Source: an uncultured Lachnospiraceae bacterium (GTDB lineage Bacteria; Bacillota; Clostridia; Lachnospirales; Lachnospiraceae). Taken from it: 64,000 nt of DNA. The notes under the pieces were generated by a model. It had not been told where the DNA came from. It worked only from the letters and a program-made list of their open reading frames with translations, and did no database searches. Location: the NCBI GenBank assembly GCA_947631955.1, contig CANRNJ010000007.1, forward strand, positions 114,143-178,142, read 5' to 3'. A program made the translations under genes and the position numbers. Positions 9,968 to 35,849 of the stretch are shown in pieces (the first letter of the stretch is position 1; the number at the start of each line of letters is the position of its first letter).

Positions 9968-10033
9968 GTTTATACTCCTTGCTGCCGTGCTTCGTTTCCA
10001 TGTAAAGCCGGTCGTCTGACCCGGCGCCCCGTA

Positions 10034-10756: not shown

Positions 10757-10819
10757 AGATTTCTCCTCATCTGCATCATAAAGGCATCATATCCACCGTG
10801 ATATCCGGTCTTTCTGATA

Positions 10820-11482: not shown

Positions 11483-11567
11483 CTTTGTATTTCACCATTA
11501 CCTCTCTTTGGCGATTAGGAAAAGTATGTCTATTCTTCACCGCACTTTACATCAAAATGCATTTAAA

Positions 11568-12659: not shown

Positions 12660-12687
12660 AAGTAATTCCTCGTACAGTATATCTCTC

Positions 12688-14211: not shown

Positions 14212-14215
14212 AAAA

Positions 14216-14785: not shown

Positions 14786-14790
14786 GTCGT

Positions 14791-16113: not shown

Positions 16114-16131
16114 TCCGAACTCCTCATTTCT

Positions 16132-17067: not shown

Positions 17068-17079
17068 TACAATTGCTCC

Positions 17080-18063: not shown

Positions 18064-18069
18064 TTTCTA

Positions 18070-19188: not shown

Positions 19189-19260
19189 TTCTCAAATATT
19201 ATGACATACAAGTCCCATGCAGATTTCTAATATTGATTTTCCATAATTCCAACCACTTTA

Positions 19261-19350
19261 CCGCCTAAGCAAGCGCATTTTATAGAAGTCTGCCGTATCG
19301 CTTCCGTCTCCGTATAACTGGTTCTAAACGGCGTTTTTGCAATAATTATT
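19261..19350 (-). pseudogene. Frameshifted remnant of an hddA 5' end
   Basis: Read on the minus strand the segment encodes IIAKTPFR in one frame and, after a one-base loss, DGSDTADFYK in the next, matching the start of HddA at 18063 (IITKTPFRISF, GGGSDMAAFYR). The match is close at nucleotide level over about 70 bases, then stops. It has no ATG and lies directly after the stop of the methyltransferase gene at 19353. It marks a past duplication or recombination junction in the operon. Confidence 0.75.
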
Positions 19351-19352
19351 CC

Positions 19353-20429
19353 TTAAATATTTCTCTCTTTACCATGAAAATGGCAAATTGCATACTTTTC
19401 ATCATCGTTATTGCATATCTCCATATCAAACGGAGGATACATTGGTCTTTTTTCAATCACAACAACTCCCGGATAATAGTGAACAGAATGCATTGATCTA
19501 GTGTATTCATTTACTTGTAAATCCTCATCCATAGAAAACCAGGCATGCAAATAATCTATAAAGTTTTTTGAGTACTCTATATAAGTATTCGGGTTTTTAT
19601 ATCCGGATTGATATTTATCTTTATTATATGAAGTAAATGTATCCTCACAAATATACACACCATCTGCCTTGATATGGGAAAACATTTCTTCAAAAGTTAC
19701 TATTTGTTGATTCATATAATGTCCGCCGTCATCTATCAAAATATCAAGTTTGGGAATTTCCTGCTTGATTTTTCTCCAAAAATTTCTATCCTCCTGATTG
19801 CCAATATAAATCTCAATCTGCTCTTCTTCTAGCTGTTTGCAACTTGGCGATATGTCAACACCGATAATCCTGGCTTTAGGTCCTAATACTCGCTTCCACA
19901 ACTGCAGAGAACCGCCCTTATTCACCCCAATCTCCATAATAGTTACTTCTTGATCAATGTACTTGTTAAAATAACGATTATATATTTCAAAATAATGCAG
20001 CCATTTAAAAGAGCGATTGTGTTTTCCAACTAAGAACTCCTTCTCCAACTCACTCAAATCGTCTGCATGACTGCACAATTCATCATACAGCGTATCGTTA
20101 GTAAGATCTTTTCTCCAGTCCGCGATCATCGTTCCTATGTTTTTAGGAGTCAATGACAGATTCAACTCGGTGTAATGCATGATTTTTTCCTTTTTTACTC
20201 CAAGTTGTATCAGAAACTCTTTAATATGAAGGAAATTTTCTACCACACTTACTATAATTTTATCGTAGTCATATACAAGGATTGCTTCAGGCGGTACAAT
20301 CAATATACCCCCCCCCTTATATTTAGCGCCTTCCGGATTCTGATCCGCAATACACAGAACATCATCGGAACTCAGCCCATTTAATACGTTTTGGCAATTT
20401 CGCCCTGCACCGTAAACAATAATTCTCAT
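19353..20429 (-). CDS. SAM methyltransferase with N-terminal Rossmann module and a G9 run
   Basis: 358 residues from the ATG at 20427-20429, which has GGGAGG seven bases upstream; a longer frame start is less likely. Residues 1-95 are a PglD-N-like unit (RIIVYGAGRNCQNVL, YDKIIVSVV). Residues 130-330 are a class I methyltransferase of the CmcI/macrocin type (IMEIGVNKGGSLQLW, IIGVDISP, ILIDDGGHYMNQQ). The nine-G run encodes Gly-Gly-Gly inside the Rossmann unit. The target is presumably a sugar hydroxyl. Confidence 0.8.
   Translation of the reverse strand: MRIIVYGAGRNCQNVLNGLSSDDVLCIADQNPEGAKYKGGGILIVPPEAILVYDYDKIIVSVVENFLHIKEFLIQLGVKKEKIMHYTELNLSLTPKNIGTMIADWRKDLTNDTLYDELCSHADDLSELEKEFLVGKHNRSFKWLHYFEIYNRYFNKYIDQEVTIMEIGVNKGGSLQLWKRVLGPKARIIGVDISPSCKQLEEEQIEIYIGNQEDRNFWRKIKQEIPKLDILIDDGGHYMNQQIVTFEEMFSHIKADGVYICEDTFTSYNKDKYQSGYKNPNTYIEYSKNFIDYLHAWFSMDEDLQVNEYTRSMHSVHYYPGVVVIEKRPMYPPFDMEICNNDDEKYAICHFHGKERNI
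20308..20316 (-). repeat. G9 homopolymer inside the methyltransferase gene at 19353
   Basis: Nine C on the plus strand, encoding three Gly codons in frame near residue 39. Slippage would remove the methyltransferase domain. Confidence 0.9.
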
Positions 20430-20496
20430 TTTACTTCCTCCCATGCACTTTTTTATCATGAATCTCTATCATTTCCCTGCCAACACATTAAATTAC

Positions 20497-22035
20497 CTAT
20501 TGCCAGATTCCTATTATCGGCTTTTCGCAATTCCATCCATTTCTCTCTATCTCCCCTTTAGCATCTTCATAAATAGACCTATCAGATATGCCTATCAAAA
20601 CATAATCGAAATTCATCGTTGCCATGGTCTCCGGTGCCGTTACCATTTCATTCGCAATATTTTGATAACTTCTATCCACCCATCCAACCAATTCACAGTA
20701 TTGTGTCAGCTTTATCGTATTATAAAATTCTCTGCCACAATTCCCAGCCCCGTACAGGCAGACTCTAACTCCCGGCGATATACCGGAATAAGGAAAGGGA
20801 AATCTGCATCTTGACAATAATTTTGTGGATATCTTTATACCCGATACCGCTGTAAGTATCTGCTCCTCGCCTGCTATTCCTTCATTCATCAGCCACTCTT
20901 TCTTTTTATTAATAATGGATTCGTCTTCATCCGATACAATGACAAATTCAAACTCGCTTTGTCGCAAAGCGTCCGGGCTTTGCACGTTTTCTCTCTCCCT
21001 CTCCAGCCACCGACCATCAGCGCAAGTATCGTCAACACAAATAACCAGTTCAAGATAATCCGTTATTAACGCAAGCATTCTCAAGGAGTCGGCTCTTTTA
21101 CCGGAACCATAAATGGCAATTTTACTTCCGTAAGGGATACTGCCATATGGATAATTTGCAGATATATCGTCCAAACTATTTTTAAGCCTTGCCCATTCCA
21201 TATTGCTATAAATCTTTCCATTTTCTTGGGCCGCTACATCAAAAAACTGCAGACACTCGGCCGCATAATGTTTCTCAAATATCCTGCGGTAATCCAAAAG
21301 CATTGATTTGCTGACTGTGTACCCCCATGTTGCCGACAACGCCACAAATAAATCCGCAACATTTTCCCGCGTTTGTTCATTTATCTCAATGGCTCCTATA
21401 TTAGCGTATACTCCATTGATCACTTCAAGATATTTATTTCCTCTTGCTACTGTCAGCAAAAGTTTTGTAGCTATGCGTGAAGCTGCATTTTGCGCCAATT
21501 TCACATTAAAGGATCTACGGTAATTTAAATCAACATCATGCAGGATTACCCACCCCCCCCCATTTATGTAAGGAAGTACACAAAGGAAATCAAGAATTTC
21601 ACCAGGCAGTCTGTGGGTTGTATCTATAATTACAAGATCAATATCTGCGCCGATCTCCTCAATTCTTTCCGCGATCGTTTTCCCCAGTAAAAATATATGA
21701 TTCAGCGAACATTCCGAAAAATCAATGTATCTCTTCATCTTTTCGTATTGATAACCTGTCGTATAATTAGAATCCAGATAAAATTTTTCATTCAAATCTA
21801 CAGATATGACATCGCATTGATCCACGCACATGCTGAGTGCATTCATAAGTACACTGGTAGTTCCTCCCTCCGCCACACCGATTTCAACTACCTTATGCGG
21901 GCGAAGGGTTTTAACGGCTCCGCACAGGAAGCCATGATCATCACGGCTCATTTCGCATAGAAATTCAGATTTATTTCTAAGCATATCTGCAGGCTCATAC
22001 CATTTTTCAACAGTTTTGTATTGCATCACCCTCAC
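20497..22035 (-). CDS. CmcI-like methyltransferase with two C-terminal Rossmann modules and a G9 run
   Basis: 512 residues. Residues 1-220 hold a class I SAM fold of the cephalosporin hydroxylase/CmcI type (KVVEIGVAEGGTTSVLMNAL, DLVIIDTTHRLPGEI, then HDVDLN). Two PglD-N-like units follow: SKIAIYGSGKRADSL with FVIVSDEDES (about 300-395) and VRVCLYGAGNCGREF with YVLIGISDRS (about 420-510). Nine G encode the Gly-Gly-Gly before TrpVal near residue 160, within the catalytic domain. No signal or membrane segment. Sugar O-methylation is the likely role. Confidence 0.78.
   Translation of the reverse strand: MRVMQYKTVEKWYEPADMLRNKSEFLCEMSRDDHGFLCGAVKTLRPHKVVEIGVAEGGTTSVLMNALSMCVDQCDVISVDLNEKFYLDSNYTTGYQYEKMKRYIDFSECSLNHIFLLGKTIAERIEEIGADIDLVIIDTTHRLPGEILDFLCVLPYINGGGWVILHDVDLNYRRSFNVKLAQNAASRIATKLLLTVARGNKYLEVINGVYANIGAIEINEQTRENVADLFVALSATWGYTVSKSMLLDYRRIFEKHYAAECLQFFDVAAQENGKIYSNMEWARLKNSLDDISANYPYGSIPYGSKIAIYGSGKRADSLRMLALITDYLELVICVDDTCADGRWLERERENVQSPDALRQSEFEFVIVSDEDESIINKKKEWLMNEGIAGEEQILTAVSGIKISTKLLSRCRFPFPYSGISPGVRVCLYGAGNCGREFYNTIKLTQYCELVGWVDRSYQNIANEMVTAPETMATMNFDYVLIGISDRSIYEDAKGEIERNGWNCEKPIIGIWQ
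21553..21561 (-). repeat. G9 homopolymer inside the CmcI-like gene
   Basis: Nine C on the plus strand, in frame, in the methyltransferase core just before the conserved HDVD segment. Confidence 0.9.
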
Positions 22036-22049
22036 CTCGTATCATTTCT

Positions 22050-23060
22050 TTATGTAACGCTTTTAACCAGAATAACTGTTCCATACTGATCAGGAATCGG
22101 CACTTTAATCATTGTGCCGTTTATGATTTCAAACTCTTCCAACGCCGTCATCACACCTTTATGTTCTACGGCGTTATAATCATGCAAAAAAATGATTCCT
22201 CCCTCTACTAATCTAGGCCAAAAAAATTCCAAGCCGTCCCTGGTAGGTCTGTACAGATCCATGTCCAAACTTACAAAACAAAAATTTGTATCCTGCTCCT
22301 GCACAGCGCTTTCTGGGAAATTGCCTTTCCTTATATTTACTTTTGCCCCCCCCCTTCTAAGTTTTTTCTTAATATGCTCTATTTGCTGCTCAGAGGTCAT
22401 ATCCTCTCTTGCAAATATATCTTTTCCTGTAAAACTGCCAAATCTCCTTTCAGATGTAAAACCTCTCTCCACATCTGCATCCATATCCCTTTTGTCAAAT
22501 CCGGAAAAAGTGTCATATAAATACAACTCTTTATCCGGGAAACAATAACTTAATGCTTTAGCAAAATTACCCATATAAACGCCGGCTTCTGCCACGGCTC
22601 CATTTAAGTTTTTGCGATATATCTCTTTACATATCAATTCCAGTGTCCTATATCGTACATACTCTCCAAAATTCTCAGCATGGCTTTCTTCTACCTTATC
22701 AATTTCCATCACCGGTACATCATTTCGCTCCCAAATAATTCTATCCTCTTCTTGCAAAAACAATATTTTGCATTTTTCAACGCCAATATCTGATAAAGTT
22801 TTGTAAATTTCATGCTCATATACTTTACTCGTAATCAATATGTAATCATATCCTGCATTTTCTATATTATATAAATCCCAAAATGCTATGCCTGGCGGAA
22901 GTTCTTTCGGATCAACATTCCTGTCAACAATTCCAACTAATTCACAGTATTCTTCGTTGAGTATTCTGCTCGCCACATACTTTCCGATCTCCCCGTATCC
23001 ATACAAGATAACTTTCGCGCCTTTGGGAAGCAGCTGTTTTGGGTATGTATATTTTTTCAT
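22050..23060 (-). CDS. TylF/MycF-type O-methyltransferase with N-terminal Rossmann module and a G9 run
   Basis: 336 residues. Residues 14-110 are a PglD-N-like unit (KVILYGYGEIGKYVA, YILITSKVYE). Residues 130-330 match the macrocin O-methyltransferase family: GVYMGNFAKAL, LYDTFSGFD, SLDMDLYRPTRDGLEFF and FLHDYNAVEHKGV, including the acidic metal-binding residues. Nine G encode Arg-Gly-Gly-Ala (KLRRGGAKV) near residue 238. The start overlaps the preceding stop by ATGA, so translation is coupled. Confidence 0.83.
   Translation of the reverse strand: MKKYTYPKQLLPKGAKVILYGYGEIGKYVASRILNEEYCELVGIVDRNVDPKELPPGIAFWDLYNIENAGYDYILITSKVYEHEIYKTLSDIGVEKCKILFLQEEDRIIWERNDVPVMEIDKVEESHAENFGEYVRYRTLELICKEIYRKNLNGAVAEAGVYMGNFAKALSYCFPDKELYLYDTFSGFDKRDMDADVERGFTSERRFGSFTGKDIFAREDMTSEQQIEHIKKKLRRGGAKVNIRKGNFPESAVQEQDTNFCFVSLDMDLYRPTRDGLEFFWPRLVEGGIIFLHDYNAVEHKGVMTALEEFEIINGTMIKVPIPDQYGTVILVKSVT
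22346..22354 (-). repeat. G9 homopolymer inside the TylF-like gene
   Basis: Nine C on the plus strand in the middle of the catalytic domain, in frame. Confidence 0.9.
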
Positions 23061-24871
23061 AGATACTCGCTCCTTATCATACGCTCTATTTGAGCAGCCA
23101 AATAAGCCTCCGCACGAGGATTTAAATGTTCAGGCGCCTTCCCCCATTTATGCCCTGACTGCGTATATAGAAACACTTCGGGAACATCTATCACATTGAC
23201 CTGACAACCATTCTTATCACACTCTGTAAGGAACAAATCATACATATCTTCTAAGGCATGATTTACCTGTTCTATCTCTCTGATATTGGCATATTTGTTT
23301 CCCATTTCATCTGCTGCGGATAACAGCATACGTACTAAAATCATTTTTGTGTGCCCCATATAAGCACAAAGCAAGGACACAAATTGCATACATGCCCGCT
23401 TCCATATATTCAAAAATCTCTCCGTAGAGCAGTTCGTCATATCCTTCAAATCAATTCCGGTGTCGTTCCATGCGTCGCTGACCGTCAAATAATGATCCTC
23501 ATCTGGTTTCCATACACCAAATCTTTCTTCGAGAAAATCGATCAACATATAATCTATATTTTCCAAATACGCCCCACACTCACTGGCAAAAATTTTTTTA
23601 AGATCATGGATAAGCATTTGCTTTCTATGCGAATTGGAGGTGGTTATCTGAGGATATTCTTCCAACTTTCTCGAAAACAAACTGACAATACTGTTATTGC
23701 TAATATGAAATACCAATTCCCCGCTTCTTAAAGCTGTTCCCCGCAAGTTAAAACTCCCCCAAACTCCATAGCGAATTTTTCTGCAATTCTGCCATGCGTC
23801 CGATAAAGATACATATTTAATCTGTTCAAGAAATCTCGCGCGGGTCACAGGTTCCTCCACACTGGTGACAGTCATCGTCTCGGAACGAGTCACTGAATTG
23901 GCTTCCATTCTTTCATAACACATTTCATTTTTGATATTCTCAAACAGTTTTAATCCTTTTAGACTATTAACCATTACTAAAGAAGTTCCCGATGGATGAA
24001 AAGTCCCTGGACTATTTTTGTATATACTCCAAAAATCAGCCAGTGTAATATCGCTTTTCCTGTTTGTAATTCCTCTAAATACACAAGTATAACACGACTT
24101 TTTCAATGCTAAATTACTTAAGAAAATCTGCATATATAGATCATGATCTTTGTCGCAAAAATATGTCTTTCCGTTTTCAAAGTCTATTTTTATACCAAAA
24201 TTAAACCAACCATATTTTTTATCTCTAAAAGAAACAGATTTTATTTTTGAATCGTATTCTTCACACTTTTCTTTCAAATACTTTTCCCAGACTTCCGGCA
24301 TCACCGTCCCATGACATACAAGATCCTGCGTATATAGGCGATCCGTATTGATACCTTCACAGTTTAAATAAGCCAAAAGTCCTTCCACCTGACAACTCGT
24401 TCCGCTAAACAACACCGTCCTTCCTTCGTTCAAATATCCTTTTACATCGCAATATGTATTTCCAACATTACTATGCACATATTTGGATCTGCGGATTTTG
24501 TCTAAGCTATGTATATCGGTAACTCCTATATGCCTGACGTGAAACTCCGCGTCAAATCCTGCTCCAAACACCACGCCATTCTTTTTCAAAATCTCTTCCG
24601 CAATTAACGAAAAAATTCCTCCCGAAGAACTTTGGCGCACAAGATCCTCTTTTTTTGCATACGCAGCATATATATTTATTTCCTTCAAATGCTTCTGCAC
24701 AGGGCAGACTCGTATACAATTTCCACAGGCAATACATTCGTCTTCTCTGATATAAGGCATGTTAGCTTTATTATCATATTCCATACATTGCCGCGGACAA
24801 ATATTCACACACGCCAAGCACGCGGTGCAAGAAGCTTCAGCAATCCGTGCCGCAGCCCTTTCCTTATCCAT
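23057..24871 (-). CDS. F420-hydrogenase beta-like ferredoxin protein fused to a DUF6270/SGNH-like domain
   Basis: 604 residues. Two [4Fe-4S] motifs open the protein (CTACLACVNICP and CIACGNCIRVCP), followed by the coenzyme F420 hydrogenase/dehydrogenase beta domain (SSGGIFSLIAEEIL, VLFSGTSCQVEGLL, CVFRGITNRKSDITLADFW) to about residue 360. In glycan clusters this family accompanies polysaccharide pyruvyltransferases. Residues about 375-600 (GVWGSFNLRGTALRS, HISNNSIVSL, GHKWGKAPEHLNP) look like DUF6270, an SGNH-hydrolase-like family. A redox or sugar-modifying step is inferred; the reaction is unknown. Confidence 0.7.
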   Translation of the reverse strand: MDKERAAARIAEASCTACLACVNICPRQCMEYDNKANMPYIREDECIACGNCIRVCPVQKHLKEINIYAAYAKKEDLVRQSSSGGIFSLIAEEILKKNGVVFGAGFDAEFHVRHIGVTDIHSLDKIRRSKYVHSNVGNTYCDVKGYLNEGRTVLFSGTSCQVEGLLAYLNCEGINTDRLYTQDLVCHGTVMPEVWEKYLKEKCEEYDSKIKSVSFRDKKYGWFNFGIKIDFENGKTYFCDKDHDLYMQIFLSNLALKKSCYTCVFRGITNRKSDITLADFWSIYKNSPGTFHPSGTSLVMVNSLKGLKLFENIKNEMCYERMEANSVTRSETMTVTSVEEPVTRARFLEQIKYVSLSDAWQNCRKIRYGVWGSFNLRGTALRSGELVFHISNNSIVSLFSRKLEEYPQITTSNSHRKQMLIHDLKKIFASECGAYLENIDYMLIDFLEERFGVWKPDEDHYLTVSDAWNDTGIDLKDMTNCSTERFLNIWKRACMQFVSLLCAYMGHTKMILVRMLLSAADEMGNKYANIREIEQVNHALEDMYDLFLTECDKNGCQVNVIDVPEVFLYTQSGHKWGKAPEHLNPRAEAYLAAQIERMIRSEYL

Positions 24872-25934
24872 TTGCCCCGCTCCTTACCACTTGCAAAAAA
24901 GTATTTAAGTCTGCACATAGTTTATTCTCATAGACAATTCCCTCTACATTTACAGTTTGTCTGATATATTGGTCAGAATTGAGTAATCGTATGCTAATCT
25001 CACTGCACAAATTTGTCTTTAAATCCCAGCTTACCAAATTGTCGCTATCCATCGTATTAAGATATAAAACAGAATTTTCTAATTCCACCCATCTTATGCG
25101 CATAACTTTACCGTCAAAGTGAGCATCTGGCAGTATGCCTTCTACTTTCCTGAACACTGTTTTCTCAACATCGAGCACATAGATATCCCCATTAAGGTAA
25201 TTTATAATAATCGTATCGTTTTTTGCGCAAAACAGGTGAAAGTAACCATCCAGTTCAACTTGACCTGTTTCGAATCCCGCTGTAGTTCCACATCTCCGTT
25301 TCGGAACATATACAAGTTTTCCGCTTCTCGGCAATCCATATACTCCCGCATCTGTAATAACCAAATCACTAAGCGGTCTGTCAATCAAATCTATTTTTTT
25401 AAACTCTCCCTCTTTTGTGCATATATCCCAATAATATATGTTGGAACTTATCGCATTAGGAAGTATAAGTTTCCCATTGTGTATCCAAGCTTTCCCACGG
25501 CTCCAAATTCCATTTGATGCTTTATCGTTCAACACAATATCAAACAGTTCAATGCTATATGTTTCCGGATTGACTTTTGCAATTACAGGCTGTGTGCCTG
25601 TAAAATACGCGCAGTTCTGATATTGATATCCATAAGAAAAATCGTACGTTCTGTTTTTATTCAATTCTACGATTTTGAAGTTTTTTCCCTGCAAATGATA
25701 AAAGTAAAAACAGTTCCCTGCATACGGCGCAAGAATTATGCAGTCTCCAATTTTTATCATCGCCTTAAACAAATCAGAAGCATATCGCGGAACAGTAATA
25801 GATGTGTAATACATTAATCCCCCGCTTGCAAGGTCCAACGCATATAAACTTCTGGTGTTGTAAGGTACAAACCAAAGCTTGCCCTGTTCAAGACAAGCCA
25901 TATTTATTTTTAGAAATCCAACCTCTGATTTCAT
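24864..25934 (-). CDS. Cytosolic beta-propeller-like protein, function unknown
   Basis: 356 residues with repeated strand-turn units of about 45-50 residues (GKLWFVPYNTRSLYALDL, GDCIILAPYAGNCFYFYHL, GKLILPNAISSNIYYWDI, GVYGLPRSGKLVYVP), the pattern of a six- or seven-bladed propeller. No signal peptide or membrane segment is present, so it should stay in the cytosol, perhaps as a scaffold. It overlaps both neighbours (ATGA with the pyruvyltransferase, eight bases with the ferredoxin gene), so it is tightly co-translated. Confidence 0.65.
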   Translation of the reverse strand: MKSEVGFLKINMACLEQGKLWFVPYNTRSLYALDLASGGLMYYTSITVPRYASDLFKAMIKIGDCIILAPYAGNCFYFYHLQGKNFKIVELNKNRTYDFSYGYQYQNCAYFTGTQPVIAKVNPETYSIELFDIVLNDKASNGIWSRGKAWIHNGKLILPNAISSNIYYWDICTKEGEFKKIDLIDRPLSDLVITDAGVYGLPRSGKLVYVPKRRCGTTAGFETGQVELDGYFHLFCAKNDTIIINYLNGDIYVLDVEKTVFRKVEGILPDAHFDGKVMRIRWVELENSVLYLNTMDSDNLVSWDLKTNLCSEISIRLLNSDQYIRQTVNVEGIVYENKLCADLNTFLQVVRSGANG

Positions 25935-27265
25935 TTTATATCCTCTTCTATACCCGGAAAAATTTTATAATATGTATCATACAATATATCCGGATTTGCG
26001 TAGATTTTATATTCACCTTTCAGAATATTTTTTGTGAAATTCAAAGCTTCATCAATATCCTTGGCAAAATAAATATTTTTAAACATACTGTTATCAAACC
26101 ACTTTATTCCTTCTGACAGCTTATGATCCGTCGATGGCAAGACCACCACAGGCGTATTCGCAATAAGCGAAAATATCATTCCGTGAAAACGGTCAGTAAT
26201 CACCACACGATATTTGGCAAATGTTTCAAATGTAGTTTCTATGACTTCCTTTCGCCTTTTCCGTATTTCTGTCCACGGCATATCTGAATCGGTATCGCCC
26301 ACCTCCGTATCCTCCAATACAGATAACTTTTTGGCAAACTCTGCCTGCGTGTTTGCATCAAATGCCGACTCTGCATAAATACTTCCTCGGAGACAAAGCA
26401 AGATACCATGTCTGTCGAAAGCATATGTTCTGCGTCCAATCAGAGCTGTAACAACATCTGGATACAGAACAACCGTACAATTCGTATAATATTTTTGGGC
26501 CAGTTCATATGACTTCCCATCTCTGCACATTATTGTCAGATTTCCATGTGCATTATATATTTTTTGCGAGCGTTTTCTCGCCGCAATTTTCTGAAAAAAT
26601 ACCGTTTGTGGTAAAAACAGCAACTTTCTTTCGGGAAACAAAAGCACTATTTTTTCGTTTAAATCCTCTTCCTTCTGAAATAGATCCGTGCAATGGTACC
26701 CACTATGTACAAGAATCGTATCATCCTTACATACAGCGAATTTAATCAGGTATAGTAAAAAATAGTAATCCCTGCGTAATGTGTTGCCTTCAAAAACAAA
26801 AACTTCACAATTCGCAAATTCTTCTTCTATCAATGATTTGATACAGTAAGTCTGTGCCTGATCTCCCAGATTCCGATGTGCCGGAGCGCCCAACAGTAAT
26901 ACTCTTTTCTTTTTGGAATGCAAAAAATTCAAGAGTTCATCGTGCTCTATTTCACATTTTTGCTTCATCCACTCTTCACATAAAATTTCATTTATATGTA
27001 CATGCTTCACCTTCAGGACACGCAGTTGTTCCGCTATACTATCATACATGTCCTGATTTTGAACCGAGATCAGAACAATATACTCTCTGTCATTTTCCAA
27101 TTCTTCCGGCGATATGCAAAAATACTTATTTTTCCATAATTTTCCCTGTAAATCCGGATTATTATCGCAAACTGCTTCTATCTCAAGCAACTTTTCAATC
27201 ATGCTAAAATATCGCTCAGAATATTTTCCGCATCCAAACAAAATATATTTTCTCAATCTTTTCAC
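25931..27265 (-). CDS. Polysaccharide pyruvyltransferase with N-terminal Rossmann module
   Basis: 444 residues. Residues 1-95 are a PglD-N-like unit (RKYILFGCGKYSERYF, YIVLISVQNQ). The remainder is the CsaB/WcaK-type pyruvyltransferase fold: LLGAPAHRNLGDQAQTYCI, LVHSGYHCTDLF, then DRFHGMIFSLIANTPVVVLPS with the conserved His. It would transfer pyruvate from phosphoenolpyruvate as a ketal onto a glycan sugar. Its neighbour at 23057 is a usual companion family. Confidence 0.82.
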   Translation of the reverse strand: MKRLRKYILFGCGKYSERYFSMIEKLLEIEAVCDNNPDLQGKLWKNKYFCISPEELENDREYIVLISVQNQDMYDSIAEQLRVLKVKHVHINEILCEEWMKQKCEIEHDELLNFLHSKKKRVLLLGAPAHRNLGDQAQTYCIKSLIEEEFANCEVFVFEGNTLRRDYYFLLYLIKFAVCKDDTILVHSGYHCTDLFQKEEDLNEKIVLLFPERKLLFLPQTVFFQKIAARKRSQKIYNAHGNLTIMCRDGKSYELAQKYYTNCTVVLYPDVVTALIGRRTYAFDRHGILLCLRGSIYAESAFDANTQAEFAKKLSVLEDTEVGDTDSDMPWTEIRKRRKEVIETTFETFAKYRVVITDRFHGMIFSLIANTPVVVLPSTDHKLSEGIKWFDNSMFKNIYFAKDIDEALNFTKNILKGEYKIYANPDILYDTYYKIFPGIEEDIK

Positions 27266-27269
27266 CTTT

Positions 27270-28667
27270 TCAGCATTGAATCATCCGAGCAGCACAGATC
27301 ACTTGATCTAAAAGAGCAATTCTTCCTTCGGGAACTTGAAATTCTTCCATTAATCTCTTCTTAATATCAAAATAATATTGCCCTGATGAAATCAAAACCA
27401 GATCATATCCCATATCACAAATCTGAGAGGGATAAATCCGTTTGCGTTCTGATTGCATATTCGCATCATCGCTGTCTGTCAATGCAACAATTTCCATCCC
27501 CATTTCACGCCAAACTTTCCCATGTCTTTTTGTAAATTCTCTGTAAGCCTGTCCAAGTCCATAGATAATGATCCTTTTTGCAAGACCAAGAGTCAAAAAA
27601 TTGTTCCATGCCCCCACACAATCATCATTAGAAATCCCACCCGGATAGATACTATATAACATTTCTTTAAGCTTCTCTGAAAATGGTCTTGCGTCATTTA
27701 CTTTTATGCCGTTTAATATAACTGACAATTCTCGAATATAAAGTCTTTTGGCGATATTACTAAAAATCCACAAAAATCTTCTCGTAAGAACTTGTGCAAA
27801 TACATCCGGTTTTATAAAACACAATTTCTGATTAATCTGTTCCAAATATGATGTGAAAGCAATATTCTCTTTCAATAATTCCCATAGTTTTTTTTCTGGC
27901 AGACTATCTGGAAAATTTCTCCAAGGACAAAATAATTCTTGGTGCCACGCCTTGCTGTCGATTCCCAAATAATGTTCCAATGCACATTGAATCGTTTTCA
28001 CATTCTCGTCATACAGCGCTTTCCCTTTTTGCTCAGATATATTGCCATAGCCATAACGATGTTTTACTAATACCTCATTCACATTAGCCATTCTGACCTT
28101 ATCTAGTATGCGAATCCACAAGTCATAGTCTTCTGCCAATTTATTTCCATCATAGAACCATTTATTCTGTATAAATAATGCCCTGCGGAACATAACAGAT
28201 GTATGACTCAACTGACATCCAAACAACATTTCCGCTTTCAGAGTTTCACTGTCGGAGGCACACTGTAATATATTCTCTGTATCGCATTTTAAAGTTACTT
28301 GCAATCCGCCGCAGATTCCAATATCCGGCTCATTTTCCAACAGTTCTCTTTGTCTTAAGAATCGGCAAGGCAAAGAAATGTCATCATCGTCCATACGCGC
28401 TATATATTTTCCTTTTGCCCTCCTAATACCTTCATTTAGCGATTCCGCTAACCCAAGTCGTTTCTCATTCCAAACAAGGCAAATTCTTTTATCTAATTTA
28501 GAATATTTTTGTACAAGATCCACCGTCGTCTTGTCTGCTCCATATTCAATGACAATTATGAATTCAAAATTCTCATACGTTTGTTTTAAAACGGATAAAA
28601 TTGCCTCTTCCAGAAAGCTTTCATCAGCATAAACCGTCATTACAACAGATATGTCAATTTCATTCAT
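27270..28667 (-). CDS. Family 2 glycosyltransferase with C-terminal Rossmann module
   Basis: 465 residues. The N-terminal GT-A domain shows ISVVMTVYADESFLEEAI, NEKRLGLAESLNEGI and the metal-binding ARMDDDD, as in inverting GT2 enzymes. Residues about 370-460 are a PglD-N-like unit (RIIIYGLGQAYREFT, LVLISSGQYYFDI). It should add one sugar to a lipid-linked intermediate in the cytosol. The acceptor and donor are unknown. It follows the TagF-like gene at 28688 by 20 bases. Confidence 0.85.
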   Translation of the reverse strand: MNEIDISVVMTVYADESFLEEAILSVLKQTYENFEFIIVIEYGADKTTVDLVQKYSKLDKRICLVWNEKRLGLAESLNEGIRRAKGKYIARMDDDDISLPCRFLRQRELLENEPDIGICGGLQVTLKCDTENILQCASDSETLKAEMLFGCQLSHTSVMFRRALFIQNKWFYDGNKLAEDYDLWIRILDKVRMANVNEVLVKHRYGYGNISEQKGKALYDENVKTIQCALEHYLGIDSKAWHQELFCPWRNFPDSLPEKKLWELLKENIAFTSYLEQINQKLCFIKPDVFAQVLTRRFLWIFSNIAKRLYIRELSVILNGIKVNDARPFSEKLKEMLYSIYPGGISNDDCVGAWNNFLTLGLAKRIIIYGLGQAYREFTKRHGKVWREMGMEIVALTDSDDANMQSERKRIYPSQICDMGYDLVLISSGQYYFDIKKRLMEEFQVPEGRIALLDQVICAARMIQC

Positions 28668-28687
28668 AACCCGCTTACTCCTATGAA

Positions 28688-30169
28688 CTAAAACTTTATA
28701 AGTACAAGGAATTGATCGTAGTTTATAATCTTATTCTTGGGCCAGTTTATTTGTGCGGTTAATTGAAAATAAATATCTGTATAATACTTATCTGAAGCAA
28801 TCACTACATAGTCGATTTGTTGTGATTTTAATTTTTCAGGTGCAAGTACAGCCTTGCCTTCATACAAGCTTTCTTGCTTTTTCTTATTATTATCAACAAA
28901 AAAAGCAATCTGCATATTTCTATTTGGATTTTCCTTTAATACGTCCATGCAGTAGGCCGCCAGATCCCCTGTTCCAAAAATTGCAATCCGATCTTCATCC
29001 TTAAGCGCATACGGCATATCCACACTAATATTTTGGTGTGCATCCTGCCATATATCTTCTTTGATTCTATCCGCACAGTTACCATCGCAAAATGGAACAC
29101 ATTCCGCAAATGCCCTGTGACGAATTTGCTTTTTTTCATCTTCTCCCCGCCTGACCATGTCACAGAATCGTATCATCATTTCTGAATCCGTTCCCTGATA
29201 GTAACTATCTAATAATTTTTGTATTGGCTCCGGAACTGGTTCATGATATTTAGGATTACTCATAAATAACACAGGAACCCCTGTTGCCCCTGCCTCTACC
29301 ATAATTGCGCTTCTGTCTACTATAATGGCATCCGCGTTTGTCAGGGAAACCCGATAATCGTCATTTTTATCAATAAATACATTTGCCATCGCTGCCAAGC
29401 GCTGTATAAGTTGTATCGCTTTTACCCTCAATTCCGGCGCAATCGTATTATCTGTAAATTTAGGATGCGGCATAAAAACAAAAAATAAATCCTGCGATTT
29501 CTCTATATATTCGGCAAATTGCAGATACTCATCTAAATCAGGGGTCGTCTGACATTTTTCACCATTTTCAATAAAAATTTTAGGAAAATGGGATTTCCAC
29601 AATATCACCCTTCTTCCAGCAATGCGATTCAACAGTTCATCCAGCCAAACATATTTTTTCTTTAAAGTGTCAAACCGCGGCAATCCTAAGGCTCTTACAG
29701 CCTGCCAGTTCATACAATGCTTTTTGTATTCATTCCTGATACTCTCAGACAATACATATACTATATGCGCATTCAAAACGACCGACAAAGAGAAGTGTTT
29801 ATAACGTGATTCCAACGTATCTGATATTTCAATTCCATATGGAATATAAACAATGCGAATCCCTTCCCGTTTGTATCTCGCTGTCCACGTATCTATCTTT
29901 CTATGTCCTTTATCATATGGAGTTTGATAGATCATATAATCCGGTTTAAACTGCATGACCCGATCATATGAAAATGGCTCATATGGTATCTGCATATTCT
30001 GTAAAAATTCTTCTGCATGCTCCATCTGCGCCTGATCACCTGCAGAACCGTCGATCCATAACAACTTTGTTTCAAATCGATCATCTTTAGCAACCCCCTC
30101 ATATAAGGATTCCCACGAAGGCCAAAAAGACGGAACCTGAAATACATATAGGATTTTAACTTTTTTCAT
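28688..30169 (-). CDS. CDP-glycerol/ribitol phosphotransferase-like protein with C-terminal Rossmann module
   Basis: 493 residues, clearly paralogous to the protein at 12688: both open with an ILYVFQ/ILFMFQ strand, share YIPYGIEISDT and the segment NADAIIVDRSAIMVEAG, and end in a PglD-N-like unit (RIAIFGTGDLAAYCM, YVVIASDKYYTDI). The family moves polyol phosphate from CDP-glycerol or CDP-ribitol. It is the first gene after the nuclease-dead TnpB gene and its putative RNA region, about 290 bases downstream of it. Confidence 0.72.
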   Translation of the reverse strand: MKKVKILYVFQVPSFWPSWESLYEGVAKDDRFETKLLWIDGSAGDQAQMEHAEEFLQNMQIPYEPFSYDRVMQFKPDYMIYQTPYDKGHRKIDTWTARYKREGIRIVYIPYGIEISDTLESRYKHFSLSVVLNAHIVYVLSESIRNEYKKHCMNWQAVRALGLPRFDTLKKKYVWLDELLNRIAGRRVILWKSHFPKIFIENGEKCQTTPDLDEYLQFAEYIEKSQDLFFVFMPHPKFTDNTIAPELRVKAIQLIQRLAAMANVFIDKNDDYRVSLTNADAIIVDRSAIMVEAGATGVPVLFMSNPKYHEPVPEPIQKLLDSYYQGTDSEMMIRFCDMVRRGEDEKKQIRHRAFAECVPFCDGNCADRIKEDIWQDAHQNISVDMPYALKDEDRIAIFGTGDLAAYCMDVLKENPNRNMQIAFFVDNNKKKQESLYEGKAVLAPEKLKSQQIDYVVIASDKYYTDIYFQLTAQINWPKNKIINYDQFLVLIKF

Positions 30170-30462
30170 ATTTCATTGTCCTTGTTCATTAAACATGTTA
30201 TCATCATAAGAATTAGCTTGGCTTCCGCCTCTGCGCAAAAAACATTCCTCATGCTTTCACGCAGTTCGCTCCGCATAAAGCCGCGGTCCTGGCGTACAAG
30301 CAGAACCTCGAAGGCTCCTGATAACGCCGTCTGGACATTTGCTGTCCGCTTTTATCATAAACGCTGTTTCCTGCGATACGGCTGCGCCGTTCAAACAGTT
30401 TCCTGTTCATTCTCAGGTCATGCTGTTTTATCGTTGTTCCTTCACATTTCCCTTTATGCAGA
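30170..30462 (-). ncRNA. Possible guide-RNA (omega-RNA-like) region 3' of the TnpB-like gene
   Basis: The 293-base gap holds no convincing gene. On the minus strand it has several hairpin-forming segments, including GCTTTATGCG pairing with CGTGAAAGC near 30253-30285, then ATGAGGAATG. TnpB and its dead relatives use an RNA encoded at or beyond the 3' end of the gene, ending in a guide. A 74-codon minus frame here is not protein-like. The RNA ends and guide are not defined by sequence alone. Confidence 0.35.
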
Positions 30463-31875
30463 TCAGTCTGCATCTGCGGTCTGATCTGCTCCGCTTTTTT
30501 CGATCCTCTCTATATTCCTTGCCGAATTGACCGCTATCGTGCTGCGGTATCCGCAGGAATCACAGATAAAATCCGCTTTGACCCGCTTTCCTTCCTTTCC
30601 GCAGTTTGAACAGACGCTCCCTGTTCCTTTAGAACTGATCTCGATAAGCTCAACCATATTCAAACGGCACTTAAAAGCGATCTGGTCCCGGATATACCCC
30701 CGAAAACTCCTCGACATTTTGCGGTTCAGAACTTTGGAATAATTCTTTGCCCGGTTTTTCGTGACCGGCTTCGTGACCACGATCTTTTCCGGTTTCTCCT
30801 CGCGGAACATGCGGTTTAATTCCGCATTGATAAAATTCTGTGTCTTTTCCCGCATCCGGCGTTTCTGTGCATCATATTTTTTGCTGCCGAGGTTGTTTTC
30901 TTCCAGTTTCTTTTTCAGGCTTTCGTTTCCTGCTTTCTGTCCTGCCGCGGCAATGACGTTTTCCGGAATTTCTTCCCTGTTTCTGCCTTTATCTGCTGCA
31001 TATGTTGCATAAATCCTGCCGCGCGCCTTATTTTTTTCCGAAAGTCTTTCCGTTTCCGGCGTGACCAGGCTGCCCAGATCTTTTCCATAAACGTTTCCGT
31101 TGGAAAGCGTCAGCATATCGCTGTAGCCGATATAGGCATAAACGGTATTGGTGTAATCCTTCCTTTTTCTTGCTTCTACATCTACGGGAAACACGATTTT
31201 TACACTGTTTTCCCTGATGATGATCCGCAGCTGCCTGTTTCCGTCCGCAATTCCTTTTACGGCGATAAAAACGCGTCTGCGCGGAGTCCGGCTTGTAAGA
31301 TACAGGCCGTTTTCATCCGTCCGGTAGCCGTTCGGCGATACCAGAAAGCTGTCGGCCTTCTGCTGTTTCGGCGTTTTCAGATGCCGCCTTGCCAGCCTGC
31401 AAAGCAGATTGTTCAGCCTTTTGACGTCAAGTTCTATATCTTTCACTTTGTCAGGCATGTCATATTCCTGACGGTTCAGCACCGCCGCAAATGTGCTGTT
31501 TATCTTCAAAACTGTCCTGAGATACAGCCGGTCGTCTTCACTTAAATTTTCATTTTCATTGATCAGGGTGCGGATCTTATTTTTCAGCATCCCCCACATT
31601 CCCTTGATGTCCCCCACCGCTTCTGCAATGGCGAGTTCATAGTATACGGCCGGCATGTTGAGCTGCTGTCTGAGCCCGCAGCAGCGCATCTCATTTAAAA
31701 TGCTGTAAACCGGCGTCAGGCGGTTTACGTTTGCAATGCCGGAGTAACGCCCGTACACATAATTTTTTACTTTGCAGTAATCCCGCGCGATGCCGCGCAG
31801 GAACTCCATCGTTTCATCCGTCAGCGGCCCGCTGTAAAGCGCTGCGGTCTTGGTAATGATCTCTTCTGTTTTCAT
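30463..31875 (-). CDS. TnpB-like protein with all three RuvC catalytic acids replaced
   Basis: 470 residues from ATG 31873-31875, which overlaps the upstream stop as ATGA. The C-terminal half follows TnpB closely: the first RuvC motif, usually GIDxG, reads AYIGYSDMLTLSNG with Tyr at 248 for Asp; the second, usually VVEDL, reads IVVTKPV with Thr at 368 for Glu; the zinc ribbon Cys 422, 425, 438, 441 is complete; the third, usually DVNAARN, reads AVNSARN with Ala at 448 for Asp. It should bind RNA and DNA without cutting, as reported for TnpB-like dead repressors (TldR). No TnpA partner is intact nearby. Confidence 0.85.
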   Translation of the reverse strand: MKTEEIITKTAALYSGPLTDETMEFLRGIARDYCKVKNYVYGRYSGIANVNRLTPVYSILNEMRCCGLRQQLNMPAVYYELAIAEAVGDIKGMWGMLKNKIRTLINENENLSEDDRLYLRTVLKINSTFAAVLNRQEYDMPDKVKDIELDVKRLNNLLCRLARRHLKTPKQQKADSFLVSPNGYRTDENGLYLTSRTPRRRVFIAVKGIADGNRQLRIIIRENSVKIVFPVDVEARKRKDYTNTVYAYIGYSDMLTLSNGNVYGKDLGSLVTPETERLSEKNKARGRIYATYAADKGRNREEIPENVIAAAGQKAGNESLKKKLEENNLGSKKYDAQKRRMREKTQNFINAELNRMFREEKPEKIVVTKPVTKNRAKNYSKVLNRKMSRSFRGYIRDQIAFKCRLNMVELIEISSKGTGSVCSNCGKEGKRVKADFICDSCGYRSTIAVNSARNIERIEKSGADQTADAD

Positions 31876-33233
31876 ACATCTATGTTCTGAATCATGACGG
31901 GCATTTCCCTTTCCCTGCAAAGCTGCACTACGCTGCTCCCATCGCCGTAATAGGCGTCGCTTATAACGACCGCTCTGTCAATATCCGCGCTGTCGTCGTA
32001 GATGCCCCATCCTTCCTGTCTGTACGTTTCAACGATCCTGCTGTATCCTTCCCATAAATATGGGCGCATGGCGCGTATCGTAGACGGAATCAGCGGATGC
32101 GGTCTCCACAAAAGCGCGATATCGTCCCGGTGTTCCTTAAATATTTCAAATACGCGGCTCATTTTTTCAAGCATCTTTTCTCCATGCTCCAACAGTGCCG
32201 TAATGCTTGTATTGTAAAAAACGATCTTTTTGTCCGTGCCGTCGGCTTTCCGGATAACCGTAAACCAGTCCGGCGGTATTTCCAGATCCTCTTTCCGGAT
32301 CCTCTGCACTCTGTCCAGTTTCGGCGAACCGGCGCCGCTTATTTTCTGTTCCACATATTTTCTGTCAATATGCTCCCCTTTGAAACCGCTTTCCTTCGCC
32401 GCCTTCAGGTACTCATTCACATAGATCTGCTTCATCTTTTCCGACTGGACGATCACCTTATCGGCGCAGATAACGCCCGGCAGAAAGATAAAATGTTTCA
32501 TGGAGTCCACCGCGGCCTGATCGTCCGGATCGATCTCGCCCAAAACAAAATAGGGGATGTATACCAGCTTGTCCGTGTATTTTCTCAAATTGCGCGCATA
32601 AAACCGCGGATGAACGCTTGTAACAAGATTGCAGTCGTCATACGCGTTGTGGATATAGATCTCATCCGGCATACGCTCTTCAAAGTTGTATGTCTGCCAA
32701 TCCGTGATCTCAATGTCTTTAGGATAATCCCCGCCCTCATAGTGCATCTCTCCGAAGCTGCGGTCGGGATTGAGATCAAAATAAGGGATCGGCACGCAGT
32801 AGGCGTCGCATTGCGGATCGGCTTTTGCCTCCAGATATACGCTTTCCAACGAGTCCCACATGCTTGCCTTATACGGGAAGAAAACCGCCTCTTTTTTGAC
32901 ATCAACGTCATTTTTCACGATGTTTTCAATTTTTATAAGCTGCTTATGCAGTACCTTGTATGTCTTATTGGGGCTGCAGTCGCCCGACTCTAACGCTTCA
33001 TATATGCTATATAATGTCTCGCAGTATTCCTCAAGACAGGCGACCGCCGCATGACCCTCTCCTTCGGTCTGCTCAATGCTCGTGCCCACTGCGACGGCAG
33101 CCTGCTGACATTCCGCCAGAATATCACATGCCTCCCGGATGCTCCCTTTATCAGCGGTGTCTTTCACCGCTCCATGCGCTGTGTCTAGTGTATGCAGGAT
33201 TCCTAATATCTCCTGTTTCTGTTTGTTTCTCAT
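31872..33233 (-). CDS. CDP-glycerol glycerophosphotransferase-like protein, first gene of the glycan operon
   Basis: 453 residues if started at ATG 33231-33233 (AGGAAA upstream); the open frame extends to 33401 and the true start is not certain. An N-terminal helical region of about 120 residues precedes a TagF-like domain: FFPYKASMWDSLESVY, LVYIPYFVLGEID, LLWRPHPLIPST and ISDAYYGDGSSVVQL. It should transfer polyol phosphate. Unlike its two paralogues in the operon it lacks the Rossmann tail. Its leader begins at the edge of the inverted repeat at 33386-33412. Confidence 0.75.
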   Translation of the reverse strand: MRNKQKQEILGILHTLDTAHGAVKDTADKGSIREACDILAECQQAAVAVGTSIEQTEGEGHAAVACLEEYCETLYSIYEALESGDCSPNKTYKVLHKQLIKIENIVKNDVDVKKEAVFFPYKASMWDSLESVYLEAKADPQCDAYCVPIPYFDLNPDRSFGEMHYEGGDYPKDIEITDWQTYNFEERMPDEIYIHNAYDDCNLVTSVHPRFYARNLRKYTDKLVYIPYFVLGEIDPDDQAAVDSMKHFIFLPGVICADKVIVQSEKMKQIYVNEYLKAAKESGFKGEHIDRKYVEQKISGAGSPKLDRVQRIRKEDLEIPPDWFTVIRKADGTDKKIVFYNTSITALLEHGEKMLEKMSRVFEIFKEHRDDIALLWRPHPLIPSTIRAMRPYLWEGYSRIVETYRQEGWGIYDDSADIDRAVVISDAYYGDGSSVVQLCREREMPVMIQNIDV

Positions 33234-33385: not shown

Positions 33386-33412
33386 TTCGCAGATTACGCA
33401 AATCTGTGAAAA
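33386..33412 (+). repeat. Left 27-bp inverted repeat (recombinase core site)
   Basis: Starts with arm TTCGCAGATT, then five-base spacer ACGCA, then arm AATCTGTGAA, then AA. The arms form a dyad with one mismatch, as expected of a tyrosine recombinase core site with an asymmetric crossover spacer. Confidence 0.85.
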
Positions 33413-33444
33413 TGTGCCGTAATCCCCATTATGAGGTAATTCAT

Positions 33445-34593
33445 TTAACCTGTTCTACCCAGAATCTGACCATGAAGCCTTATGTAAAACGCGCATAGAC
33501 TGTCCGCATACATACGCTTGGTGTCCATAGACGGATGCACATAATAATTTAGGGTGATCTTCACGTTGGAATGTCCCAGCATTTCGCTCAAAGATTTGAC
33601 ATCTGTTCCGCCTTCAATGCAGTTTGTGGCATATGTGTGACGCAATGTGTGGAAATTTTTATAAGCTATGCCCGCTTCTTTTAAAATCTTTTTGTAATGG
33701 TTCTGCATAGTCTTTGGATCAAGCGGCTTATCGCCGCCAAATACATATTCCTTTGCGTTTCTAAAATCATTCAACAGAGTAACGATGGTGTCCTGCAATG
33801 GGAGTTTGCGTTTTGAATTTCTGCTTTTCGGGGCTGTTTCCACCAAAGCCGTTTTTTTCGCTGCGGTTTCCACATAAAGCCTCTGGACAGTCCTTCTTAC
33901 CGTGATCGTTTTGTTTGCAAAATCAATGTCGGACCATTTCAGGGCGCACAACTCCCCAAGACGCAGACCGGTAAAAAGGCATAAGAGTACGCCCAGTCTG
34001 AACCGATCCGTATCGCTGCAGAGAACGGACAGGAGTTTCGCCTGCTCGGATTTGGTAAATGTCCCCACTTCTTTCCTGTTTGCCTTCACAGACGGCCTTT
34101 TTACTTCCGAAAGCGCCATATGGTATTGGCATGCAGCATATCGCAGGATGCCGTTTAATACACCGTAAATACTTTTCAGCAGGCTTTCCGATGCCGCCCC
34201 GCAGGATGCAAGGCTATCGTGGGCGAAGTTTTCTGTAATCTGCAAAAGCGGCATGTCCCTGAACGCTTTTTCAAGATAACTATGATATATAAAGTTGTAC
34301 TTCTCATAGGTGGACGGTTTCTGGGCGGATTTCACGGCAGCCAGCCATTCTTGCGCCGCTGTCGCAAAATCAATGTCCCTCGGCGCGTCAATTCCCTGCC
34401 CCAAAGTATTTTCTGTTCTAGTTGACGCTGCAGGCAGCCTTGATGCCGCTGCACGTTTTTTCTTGGCTTCCTCATATGTATATCCATATACGGAACGACA
34501 GACTGTTTTTCTTTTCCCCTCATCATATACCATATAGCGCGCTTCCCAGCGCCCGTCGCTGCGTTTCCTTATATTCTCACCGTGTCTTCCCAT
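33445..34593 (-). CDS. Tyrosine recombinase (phage-type integrase family)
   Basis: 382 residues from ATG 34591-34593, placed eight bases after GGAGGG. The N-terminal arm-type DNA-binding region (KRSDGRWEARYMVYDEGKRK) and SAM-like core-binding domain precede the catalytic domain with all residues: Arg in TGLRLGELCALKW, HTLRH, GHSNVKITLNYYVH containing the nucleophilic Tyr. It looks like Tn916-type integrases but has no excisionase or cargo; the only nearby sites are the two inverted core repeats flanking it. Transcribed toward the glycan operon in the present orientation. Confidence 0.92.
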   Translation of the reverse strand: MGRHGENIRKRSDGRWEARYMVYDEGKRKTVCRSVYGYTYEEAKKKRAAASRLPAASTRTENTLGQGIDAPRDIDFATAAQEWLAAVKSAQKPSTYEKYNFIYHSYLEKAFRDMPLLQITENFAHDSLASCGAASESLLKSIYGVLNGILRYAACQYHMALSEVKRPSVKANRKEVGTFTKSEQAKLLSVLCSDTDRFRLGVLLCLFTGLRLGELCALKWSDIDFANKTITVRRTVQRLYVETAAKKTALVETAPKSRNSKRKLPLQDTIVTLLNDFRNAKEYVFGGDKPLDPKTMQNHYKKILKEAGIAYKNFHTLRHTYATNCIEGGTDVKSLSEMLGHSNVKITLNYYVHPSMDTKRMYADSLCAFYIRLHGQILGRTG

Positions 34594-34776
34594 TCCATTA
34601 ACCCTCCGTTTGCCGCTGATTTTTGACCACATATCTGACCACAAAAGATGCTGTTTCCCATGAAATTAAAAATTCTTCCTGTTTTATCTTTTTTAATGTT
34701 TATCCTCCCGTGCTTATTGATGCGAATTTTAGTTAAATAATCTGCGTAAATTTGAATAAAATCGAGAAAAAAACTA

Positions 34777-34805
34777 TTGTAATGACAAAAAAACTATGCT
34801 ATACT
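34777..34805 (+). promoter_or_regulatory. Strong promoter inside the invertible segment, pointing out through the right repeat
   Basis: TTGTAA (34777-34782), 17-base spacer, TATACT (34800-34805) with an extended TGC just before the -10. Transcription would start near 34812, about 37 bases before the right repeat. No gene lies immediately to the right, only an IS remnant, so in this orientation it appears to drive nothing useful. Confidence 0.75.
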
Positions 34806-34848
34806 AAAACAAAATTGTGCATAATTGACATACAGATGCCGTACTTCC

Positions 34849-34875
34849 TTTTCACAGATTTGCGTAATCTGCGAA
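34849..34875 (-). repeat. Right 27-bp inverted repeat (recombinase core site)
   Basis: Exact reverse complement of 33386-33412. A partial extra half-site, TAATCTGCG, lies inside the segment near 34739 and might be an accessory binding site. Confidence 0.9.
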
Positions 34876-35630: not shown

Positions 35631-35634
35631 ATAA

Positions 35635-35842: not shown

Positions 35843-35849
35843 ATAAAAA

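What the first reader, a model, noticed from the sequence alone, without database searches (positions are those of the whole stretch)
33386..34875. Self-contained invertible promoter switch upstream of a 24-kb glycan operon
Seen: perfect 27-bp inverted repeats, each an imperfect dyad of two 10-base arms around an asymmetric five-base spacer, flank a complete tyrosine recombinase. A near-consensus promoter (TTGTAA, 17 bases, extended TATACT) lies 44 bases inside the right repeat and points outward to the right, where only an IS remnant is found. If the segment inverts, the promoter points through the left repeat into the first operon gene with about a 150-base leader. The present state would be OFF. 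Known: tyrosine recombinases acting on inverted sites give inversion, and invertible promoters control surface structures in gut bacteria. Inference: this one phase-switches the whole polymer.
Basis: partly seen in the sequence, partly recalled or inferred. Interest (0 to 1): 0.93.

Follow-up and report, generated by a model that had tools for sequence, protein, structure and literature searches.

The report
Flipping promoter heads dead-TnpB glycan operon
A likely gut bacterium carries a 1.5-kb DNA segment, with a recombinase gene and an outward-facing predicted promoter between perfect inverted repeats, that is predicted to flip and so switch a 24-kb predicted sugar-polymer operon on or off; the operon's second gene is a relative of the RNA-guided nuclease TnpB that has apparently lost its cutting residues, and a conserved, predicted structured RNA follows it.

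Summary
Two perfect 27-bp inverted repeats flank a tyrosine recombinase and an outward promoter; the window copy points away from the operon (OFF). Relatives hold the same cassette: 30 of 34 recombinase entries have such a repeat pair, and the outward promoter is a perfect TTGACA-17-TATAAT in 12 of 30. Relatives with homologous operon-side DNA carry the segment the other way round. In the window's own genome the promoter end of a second switch is joined to two different flanks, with a 77-nt contig overlap, as expected if both orientations coexist. The larger find is what the switch controls. The operon's second gene encodes a protein of predicted TnpB fold with the RuvC catalytic positions replaced, followed by a conserved RNA that covaries in a sister clade and had no Rfam match. 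This pair sits behind switch sites in many related genomes, eight genera counted. It resembles TldR (nuclease-dead TnpB repressors), but no guide match was found, so membership is not shown. What the pair does is inferred. A new variant of known kinds.

The parts
33386..33412 (.). left recombination site (operon side), TTCGCAGATTACGCAAATCTGTGAAAA
   Evidence: site motif shared by most relatives
34849..34875 (.). right recombination site, exact inverted copy
33445..34593 (-). tyrosine recombinase (382 aa from ATG; ORF open to 34644)
   Evidence: PF00589 E 1e-29, PF14659; best PDB sequence matches are Int proteins 6en0/6emz
34777..34805 (+). outward promoter-like sequence TTGTAA-17-TATACT with extended -10 TG; points away from the operon in this orientation (OFF)
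   Evidence: similar place in relatives
31872..33233 (-). operon gene 1, 453 aa, no Pfam family; 4 of 120 listed homologs carry PF04464 (Glyphos_transf)
   Evidence: conserved near switches
30463..31875 (-). operon gene 2, 470 aa: predicted TnpB/Cas12-fold protein, RuvC catalytic positions replaced, zinc ribbon kept
   Evidence: PF07282, NF040570 below cut-off, residues in 121 sequences, model and fold search
30200..30331 (-). conserved RNA element directly 3' of gene 2
   Evidence: covariation shown in the sister clade; no Rfam match
8894..30169 (-). glycan genes: glycosyltransferase, pyruvyltransferase, FrhB-type, methyltransferases, GHMP kinase, epimerase, nucleotidyltransferase-HAD, SIS, DUF4422, ribulose-P epimerase, IspD-like cytidylyltransferase, dehydrogenase; some members without a family

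Best explanation
The 1,490-bp segment at 33386-34875, which holds a tyrosine recombinase and an outward-facing predicted promoter between perfect inverted sites and whose counterparts in relatives stand in both orientations, is predicted to be flipped by its own recombinase and so to switch on or off the 24-kb operon to its left, whose second gene is a TnpB relative that has apparently lost its catalytic residues and is followed by a conserved, predicted structured RNA. Shown: the sites, the recombinase gene, the shared promoter position, opposite orientations against homologous operon DNA, the replaced residues in the alignment, the RNA covariation in a sister clade and the linkage. Predicted or inferred: the TnpB fold (a model), that the window copy is OFF, that inversion changes transcription, that the recombinase acts on these sites. 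For the protein-RNA pair I commit, with low confidence (about 0.35), to a ribonucleoprotein that is made only in ON cells and acts on the operon's own transcription (antitermination-like), not to a guide-directed repressor, since no guide match was found.
For: Inverted sites in 30 of 34 entries (two of the four misses are the same contig); 26 of these 30 fit the site motif and 24 of the 26 have equal spacers at both ends. Outward promoter at least 10 of 12 in 20 of 30, against 4.7% of shuffles. Of 15 loci with gene 2 (window included), 6 have the operon on the promoter side (ON) and 9 on the recombinase side (OFF). Homology of the operon flank starts within 20 nt of the site edge in ON/OFF pairs: window OFF and L008 ON, 78% over 3.2 kb; L073 OFF and L083 ON, 85% over 1.0 kb; L072 OFF and L071 ON, 75% over 3.0 kb. 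Own genome: contigs C10 (operon side) and C4 (another flank, with a terminator-like hairpin beside the site) share exactly 77 nt, the promoter end plus site; a 36-mer of this end occurs at these two places only. Gene 2: 24 of 77 congeneric genomes and 15 of 397 family genomes in 13 genera, the own included.
Against: No reads and no expression data. The window's own switch is seen in one orientation only. The 77-nt join could also come from two loci with an identical switch end; the inner contig was not found in the assembly. The window promoter alone is not above chance. The pairs were picked with a filter for site-like strings (the unfiltered one search gave the same kind of pair as best hit except for L013, where it came second). 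ON/OFF was assigned from gene layout. Four genus loci with gene 2 show no site upstream, and 9 of 19 family loci lack the motif. For the protein-RNA pair: antitermination rests only on position and on 4 sense-strand terminator-like hairpins in the operon against 0.6 expected, a small count; three other operon stretches gave 0, and control regions also show some.
Confidence: 0.82

Rival explanations
1. The protein-RNA pair is a TldR-type RNA-guided repressor: the sequence right after the RNA scaffold is a short guide that blocks a promoter elsewhere, for example a rival glycan locus, so that only one polymer is made at a time.
For: Replaced catalytic positions, adjacent RNA, domestication next to non-transposon genes, and DNA inversion next to csrA-tldR loci are as described for TldR (PMC13418256, passages). 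Sequence after the scaffold differs between loci.
Against: The 16 nt after the window RNA has no match in its genome at 0-1 mismatches other than itself. Own and sister switch regions: 0 of 23 guides better than shuffles at p<0.05. Whole loci: runs are in the range of shuffles, though L081, L118 and L119 equal the shuffled maximum of 11-12 nt. The sequence is not conserved between the close relatives L007 and L008. But a 6-9 nt guide would escape these tests.
Confidence: 0.33
2. The switch is a relic stuck OFF and the operon is driven by another promoter in the leader.
For: A 9-of-12 promoter-like match at 33344-33316; the window switch was assembled in one orientation.
Against: Its -35 is not conserved; spacers stay equal in 24 of 26 loci; both orientations occur in relatives and probably in the own genome for the second switch.
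Confidence: 0.08
3. The cassette is a mobile element, and the repeats are its ends.
For: The recombinase's best PDB matches are Int proteins (from Tn1549, recalled); a unit from left site to RNA end is mostly 95-100% identical at two loci of one genome and ends there.
Against: The sites are inverted, not direct, so such an enzyme would invert rather than excise; the copied unit includes the operon head, so it fits gene conversion or duplication as well; the promoter keeps its place relative to the site.
Confidence: 0.05
4. Gene 2 and its RNA are only a decayed transposon gene.
For: Predicted TnpB fold; pieces of a broken IS200-type transposase lie near the right repeat; one relative (G036) has stops in gene 2.
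Against: Among 121 sequences the RuvC-I and RuvC-III positions are never acidic while the zinc-ribbon cysteines read are kept in 120; compensatory RNA changes; 26 of 28 RNAs sit directly behind gene 2 and the other 2 are at contig ends.
Confidence: 0.04

Closest known systems
Invertible promoters of gut bacteria (invertons; Bacteroides capsule switches; Clostridioides difficile flg and cwpV switches, seen as abstract starts)
   Same: Promoter or control DNA between inverted repeats, site-specific recombinase, surface-structure target, ON/OFF by orientation.
   Different: Recombinase inside the inverting segment; site TTCGCAGA-N9-TCTGCGAA; dead-TnpB/RNA genes at the operon head. PMC11892184 (passages) lists a Firmicutes_A inverton group 139 with a nearby tyrosine recombinase, which may overlap this family; its supplement was not open to me.
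TldR, TnpB-like nuclease-dead repressors, including csrA-tldR loci with hin (PMC13418256, passages)
   Same: TnpB homolog with inactive RuvC, adjacent RNA, non-transposon neighbours, DNA inversion close by.
   Different: Glycan operon rather than flagellin; tyrosine recombinase rather than Hin; the pair lies inside the switched operon; no guide or target found.
TnpB-omegaRNA of IS200/IS605 and IS607 elements
   Same: Predicted fold (8h1j TMt 0.63, 8iaz TMt 0.51), zinc ribbon, RNA directly 3' of the gene.
   Different: Catalytic positions replaced; sits in a glycan operon.
UpxY/UpxZ of Bacteroides capsule operons (recalled; UpxY named in PMC11892184)
   Same: Regulators encoded first in a phase-variable polysaccharide operon.
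   Different: Other protein family; here with an RNA.

Membership tests
Invertible promoter (inverton) | inverted repeat pair around a promoter | tested here: met
   the promoter is predicted
Invertible promoter (inverton) | site-specific recombinase that could act on it | tested here: met
   PF00589, inside the segment; action on these sites not tested
Invertible promoter (inverton) | both orientations occur | tested here: met
   between relatives; within the own genome for the second switch, by contig overlap; not seen for the window switch itself
Invertible promoter (inverton) | orientation changes transcription of the neighbour | not testable with these tools
   no RNA data
TldR | TnpB homolog with inactivated RuvC | tested here: met
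   RuvC-I and RuvC-III positions never acidic in 121; RuvC-II non-acidic in the 120 of 121 that the call shows; fold. Positions I and II are placed by recalled TnpB motifs; loss of activity is inferred
TldR | adjacent structured guide-RNA scaffold | tested here: met
   an adjacent structured RNA; that it is a guide RNA is not shown
TldR | guide complementary to a target promoter | tested here: inconclusive
   no match found; guides shorter than about 10 nt are not excluded
TldR | represses transcription | not testable with these tools
   needs experiment
Active TnpB nuclease | D-E-D catalytic residues | tested here: not met

The most novel reading that the evidence does not exclude
A domesticated, nuclease-dead TnpB with a guide-less descendant of its omegaRNA has become the dedicated regulator of phase-variable glycan operons: the flip turns on the operon, the RNA folds in the nascent transcript, the protein binds it and carries RNA polymerase through the long operon. 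That would be a further use of TnpB-type proteins beside cutting and guided repression.
Probability: 0.22. Interest if true: 0.95.

Novelty: new variant of a known kind. Interest (0 to 1): 0.84.

Why it matters
It joins two fields: phase variation of surface glycans in little-studied Lachnospiraceae-type bacteria, and exaptation of TnpB. If the pair works with a guide, it could explain how one cell chooses among glycan loci; if without a guide, it would be a new mode of action for a TnpB-RNA complex. Either is directly testable, since protein, RNA and switch are small and the family is large.

Tried and rejected
Guide targets: 16-mer after the window RNA in the whole genome (25 hits at up to 3 mismatches, 22 for the reversed control); 23 guides against switch regions and loci: negative. 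Rfam: at gathering level only an unrelated RNase P in five relatives; at E 1 in window 28000-36000 only tRNAs and two sub-threshold hits lying on the tRNAs. Stand-alone RNAs without gene 2: none convincing. Same contig-end signature in G111: uninformative, that sequence occurs on five contigs there. Antitermination terminators: suggestive only. Mobile-element reading considered and set low. Defence-system reading: PADLOC gives only weak Cas12f/Cas12u matches to gene 2 and none to gene 1 or the recombinase. Single-sequence folding of the window RNA is not exceptional (z -1.29; two clade II RNAs -3.23 and -2.82). One covariation measure, further pair types, was not above shuffles (41 against 40.2). 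An earlier count said 12 of 19 family loci with sites; the correct count is 10.

Literature: ten searches, judged from titles and abstract starts of the listed papers (searches listed only 15 of 139 and 12 of 28), showed no paper on a dead TnpB at glycan operons. PMC13418256 and PMC11892184 were seen as passages only. The 2024 Nature paper on TldR was not held and is known to me from its citation and recall.

Full report
What is in the window. Two perfect 27-bp inverted repeats, 33386-33412 and 34849-34875, enclose a tyrosine recombinase gene on the minus strand and a promoter-like sequence that points out through the right repeat. The operon starts 152 nt left of the left repeat and runs co-directionally to 8894. 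In this orientation the promoter faces pieces of a broken IS200-type transposase (weak Pfam match on one of two pieces) and tRNA genes on the other strand, so the state would be OFF.

A family of cassettes. One scan of genome contigs gave 35 loci; the 12 close ones (63-82% identity) are all from bins named Lapin (French for rabbit) and labelled Lachnospiraceae, Clostridia or Acetatifactor. A search of 98 related genomes, the own included, gave a recombinase at E 1e-60 or better in 18. Of 34 entries examined with flanks, 30 have an inverted pair around the recombinase; the misses are L010, L070, L078, L085, of which L010 and L085 are one contig. Sites read TTCGCAGA-N9-TCTGCGAA, with small variations, in 26 of 30, with equal spacers at both ends in 24 of the 26. 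Spacers differ between the two switches of the window's genome. The outward promoter lies 33-47 nt from the site in the window clade and 57-87 in the more distant one; 12 of 30 are perfect TTGACA-17-TATAAT, and 20 of 30 score at least 10 of 12 against 4.7% of shuffles. The window promoter alone (9 of 12) would not stand out.

Evidence for inversion. Among 15 loci with gene 2, the operon lies on the promoter side in 6 (ON) and on the recombinase side in 9 (OFF, the window included). Homology of the operon flank begins within 20 nt of the site edge in ON/OFF pairs: window/L008 78% over 3.2 kb, L073/L083 85% over 1.0 kb, L072/L071 75% over 3.0 kb. For one search I set eight loci as ON from layout and left the rest as OFF. 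In the window's own genome a second switch has one end on contig C10, reading from the promoter through the site into gene 1 of a second operon, and one end on contig C4, reading from the same promoter end through the same site into another flank. The two contig ends share exactly 77 nt, and a 36-mer of this end occurs at these two places only. One DNA molecule with one promoter end cannot give both joins, so either both orientations were in the sample or two loci share an identical end. A length of 77 is a usual assembler word size (recalled). Beside the site, C4 carries a hairpin with T runs on both strands, which would stop OFF-state transcription (read).

The genes behind the switch. Gene 2 (30463-31875) matches the TnpB/Cas12f zinc-ribbon family and, below its cut-off, NCBI's guided TnpB model. 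Its AlphaFold model is of middling quality (pLDDT 80, pTM 0.57); the 50 PDB hits listed are all TnpB, Fanzor or Cas12 types, with modest TM-scores. In 121 aligned sequences the positions that match the RuvC-I and RuvC-III aspartates are never acidic (Y/H/F/C; A/P/S/G or a gap), and the RuvC-II position is non-acidic in the 120 shown. The first two positions are placed by recalled motifs, the third also by the alignments. A 45-sequence profile reached 18 PDB sequences, TnpB/Cas12 types by name, mostly through the C-terminal part.

The RNA. The gap after gene 2 (window 30170-30462) holds a conserved RNA element. In 19 sister-clade RNAs a 32-pair structure with a pseudoknot forms in 94.3% of cells against 36-44% when slid; 21 of 32 pairs change on both sides (15.1 shuffled), and the covariation score is 0.473 against 0.227 shuffled and 0.08-0.12 slid; the number of further pair types is not above shuffles. 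The structure was drawn on one of these sequences, which favours it over the slid versions. A model of the window-clade RNA finds exactly two copies in the own genome, both behind gene 2. A model of the sister clade finds 28 in 21 of 77 congeneric genomes: 26 directly behind gene 2, 2 at contig ends. Of 19 loci from other genera of the family, 18 have it, one of them (L167) weakly.

Linkage of switch and pair. Of 30 gene-2 loci in the genus, 18 show a TTCGCAGA-type site just upstream, one (L110) has the recombinase with the repeats seen for the same place, and four have gene 1 between and a switch site beyond it; four have none (L115, L117, L118, L128) and three start at contig ends, of which L124 and L125 still show a site or part of one at the contig start. 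Three of the 18 (L111-L113) are mini-switches of 387-398 bp with no recombinase and a perfect promoter, two pointing away and one towards the operon. Of 19 family loci, 10 show the site, in seven other genera, and 8 the recombinase; L169, L172, L174, L181 and the genus locus L115 have short inverted pairs of another kind, for which no chance control was run. So different switches may stand before the same pair.

How it may work. Inversion would place the promoter before gene 1, giving a leader of about 215 nt. Gene 2 and the RNA would then be made only in ON cells. A TldR-like guide was looked for and not found; very short guides remain possible, since a 6-nt guide sufficed in the TldR work (PMC13418256, passages). 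The alternative, action on the own transcript, fits the strict position of the RNA near the operon head and a few sense-strand terminator-like hairpins: 4 against 0.6 in the window operon, 2 against 0.5 in the C10 operon, 0 in three shorter ones. This is weak.

Other targets. Related switches without gene 2 face CpsB/CapC and Wzz genes (L003, L005), a glycosyltransferase (L013), HSP70-type genes (L009, L011, L012) and a BspA-type leucine-rich protein (L016), so the switch family is not limited to glycans.

Limits. No reads, no expression data, one genome per species, and the supplement of the inverton paper not open.

Noticed in passing
window 35029-35323: Broken IS200-type transposase pieces on the minus strand just right of the switch; one of two pieces matches Y1_Tnp at E 8e-4, below the curated cut-off.
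   Followed up: partly
L006 9735-14548 and L014 6914-11746: Two loci of one genome are mostly 95-100% identical (two blocks 86 and 90%) from the left site to the RNA end and unrelated outside; the own C7 and C10 loci are 100% identical over the gene 2 blocks, with a few differences in the RNA. Points to gene conversion or copying of the operon head.
   Followed up: partly
L111, L112, L113 upstream of gene 2: Mini-switches of 387-398 bp with inverted sites and a perfect promoter but no recombinase; presumably flipped in trans.
   Followed up: partly
L011, L012, L009: The same switch family before HSP70-type genes, an unusual target for phase variation.
   Followed up: no
L069, L111-L114, L119, L124, after the RNA: A shared block like ACCTTGACAATTTCATACTTTA followed by promoter-like sequence between the RNA and the glycan genes.
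   Followed up: no
window 33316-33350 (leader): A conserved leader stretch GCTG..CAGATACCATTATCAGC in relatives, possibly a hairpin.
   Followed up: no
L169, L172, L174, L181, L115: Short inverted pairs of another kind (around AAAAAGTATA..TTTTT in four of them) before gene 2, possibly a second kind of switch for the same module.
   Followed up: partly
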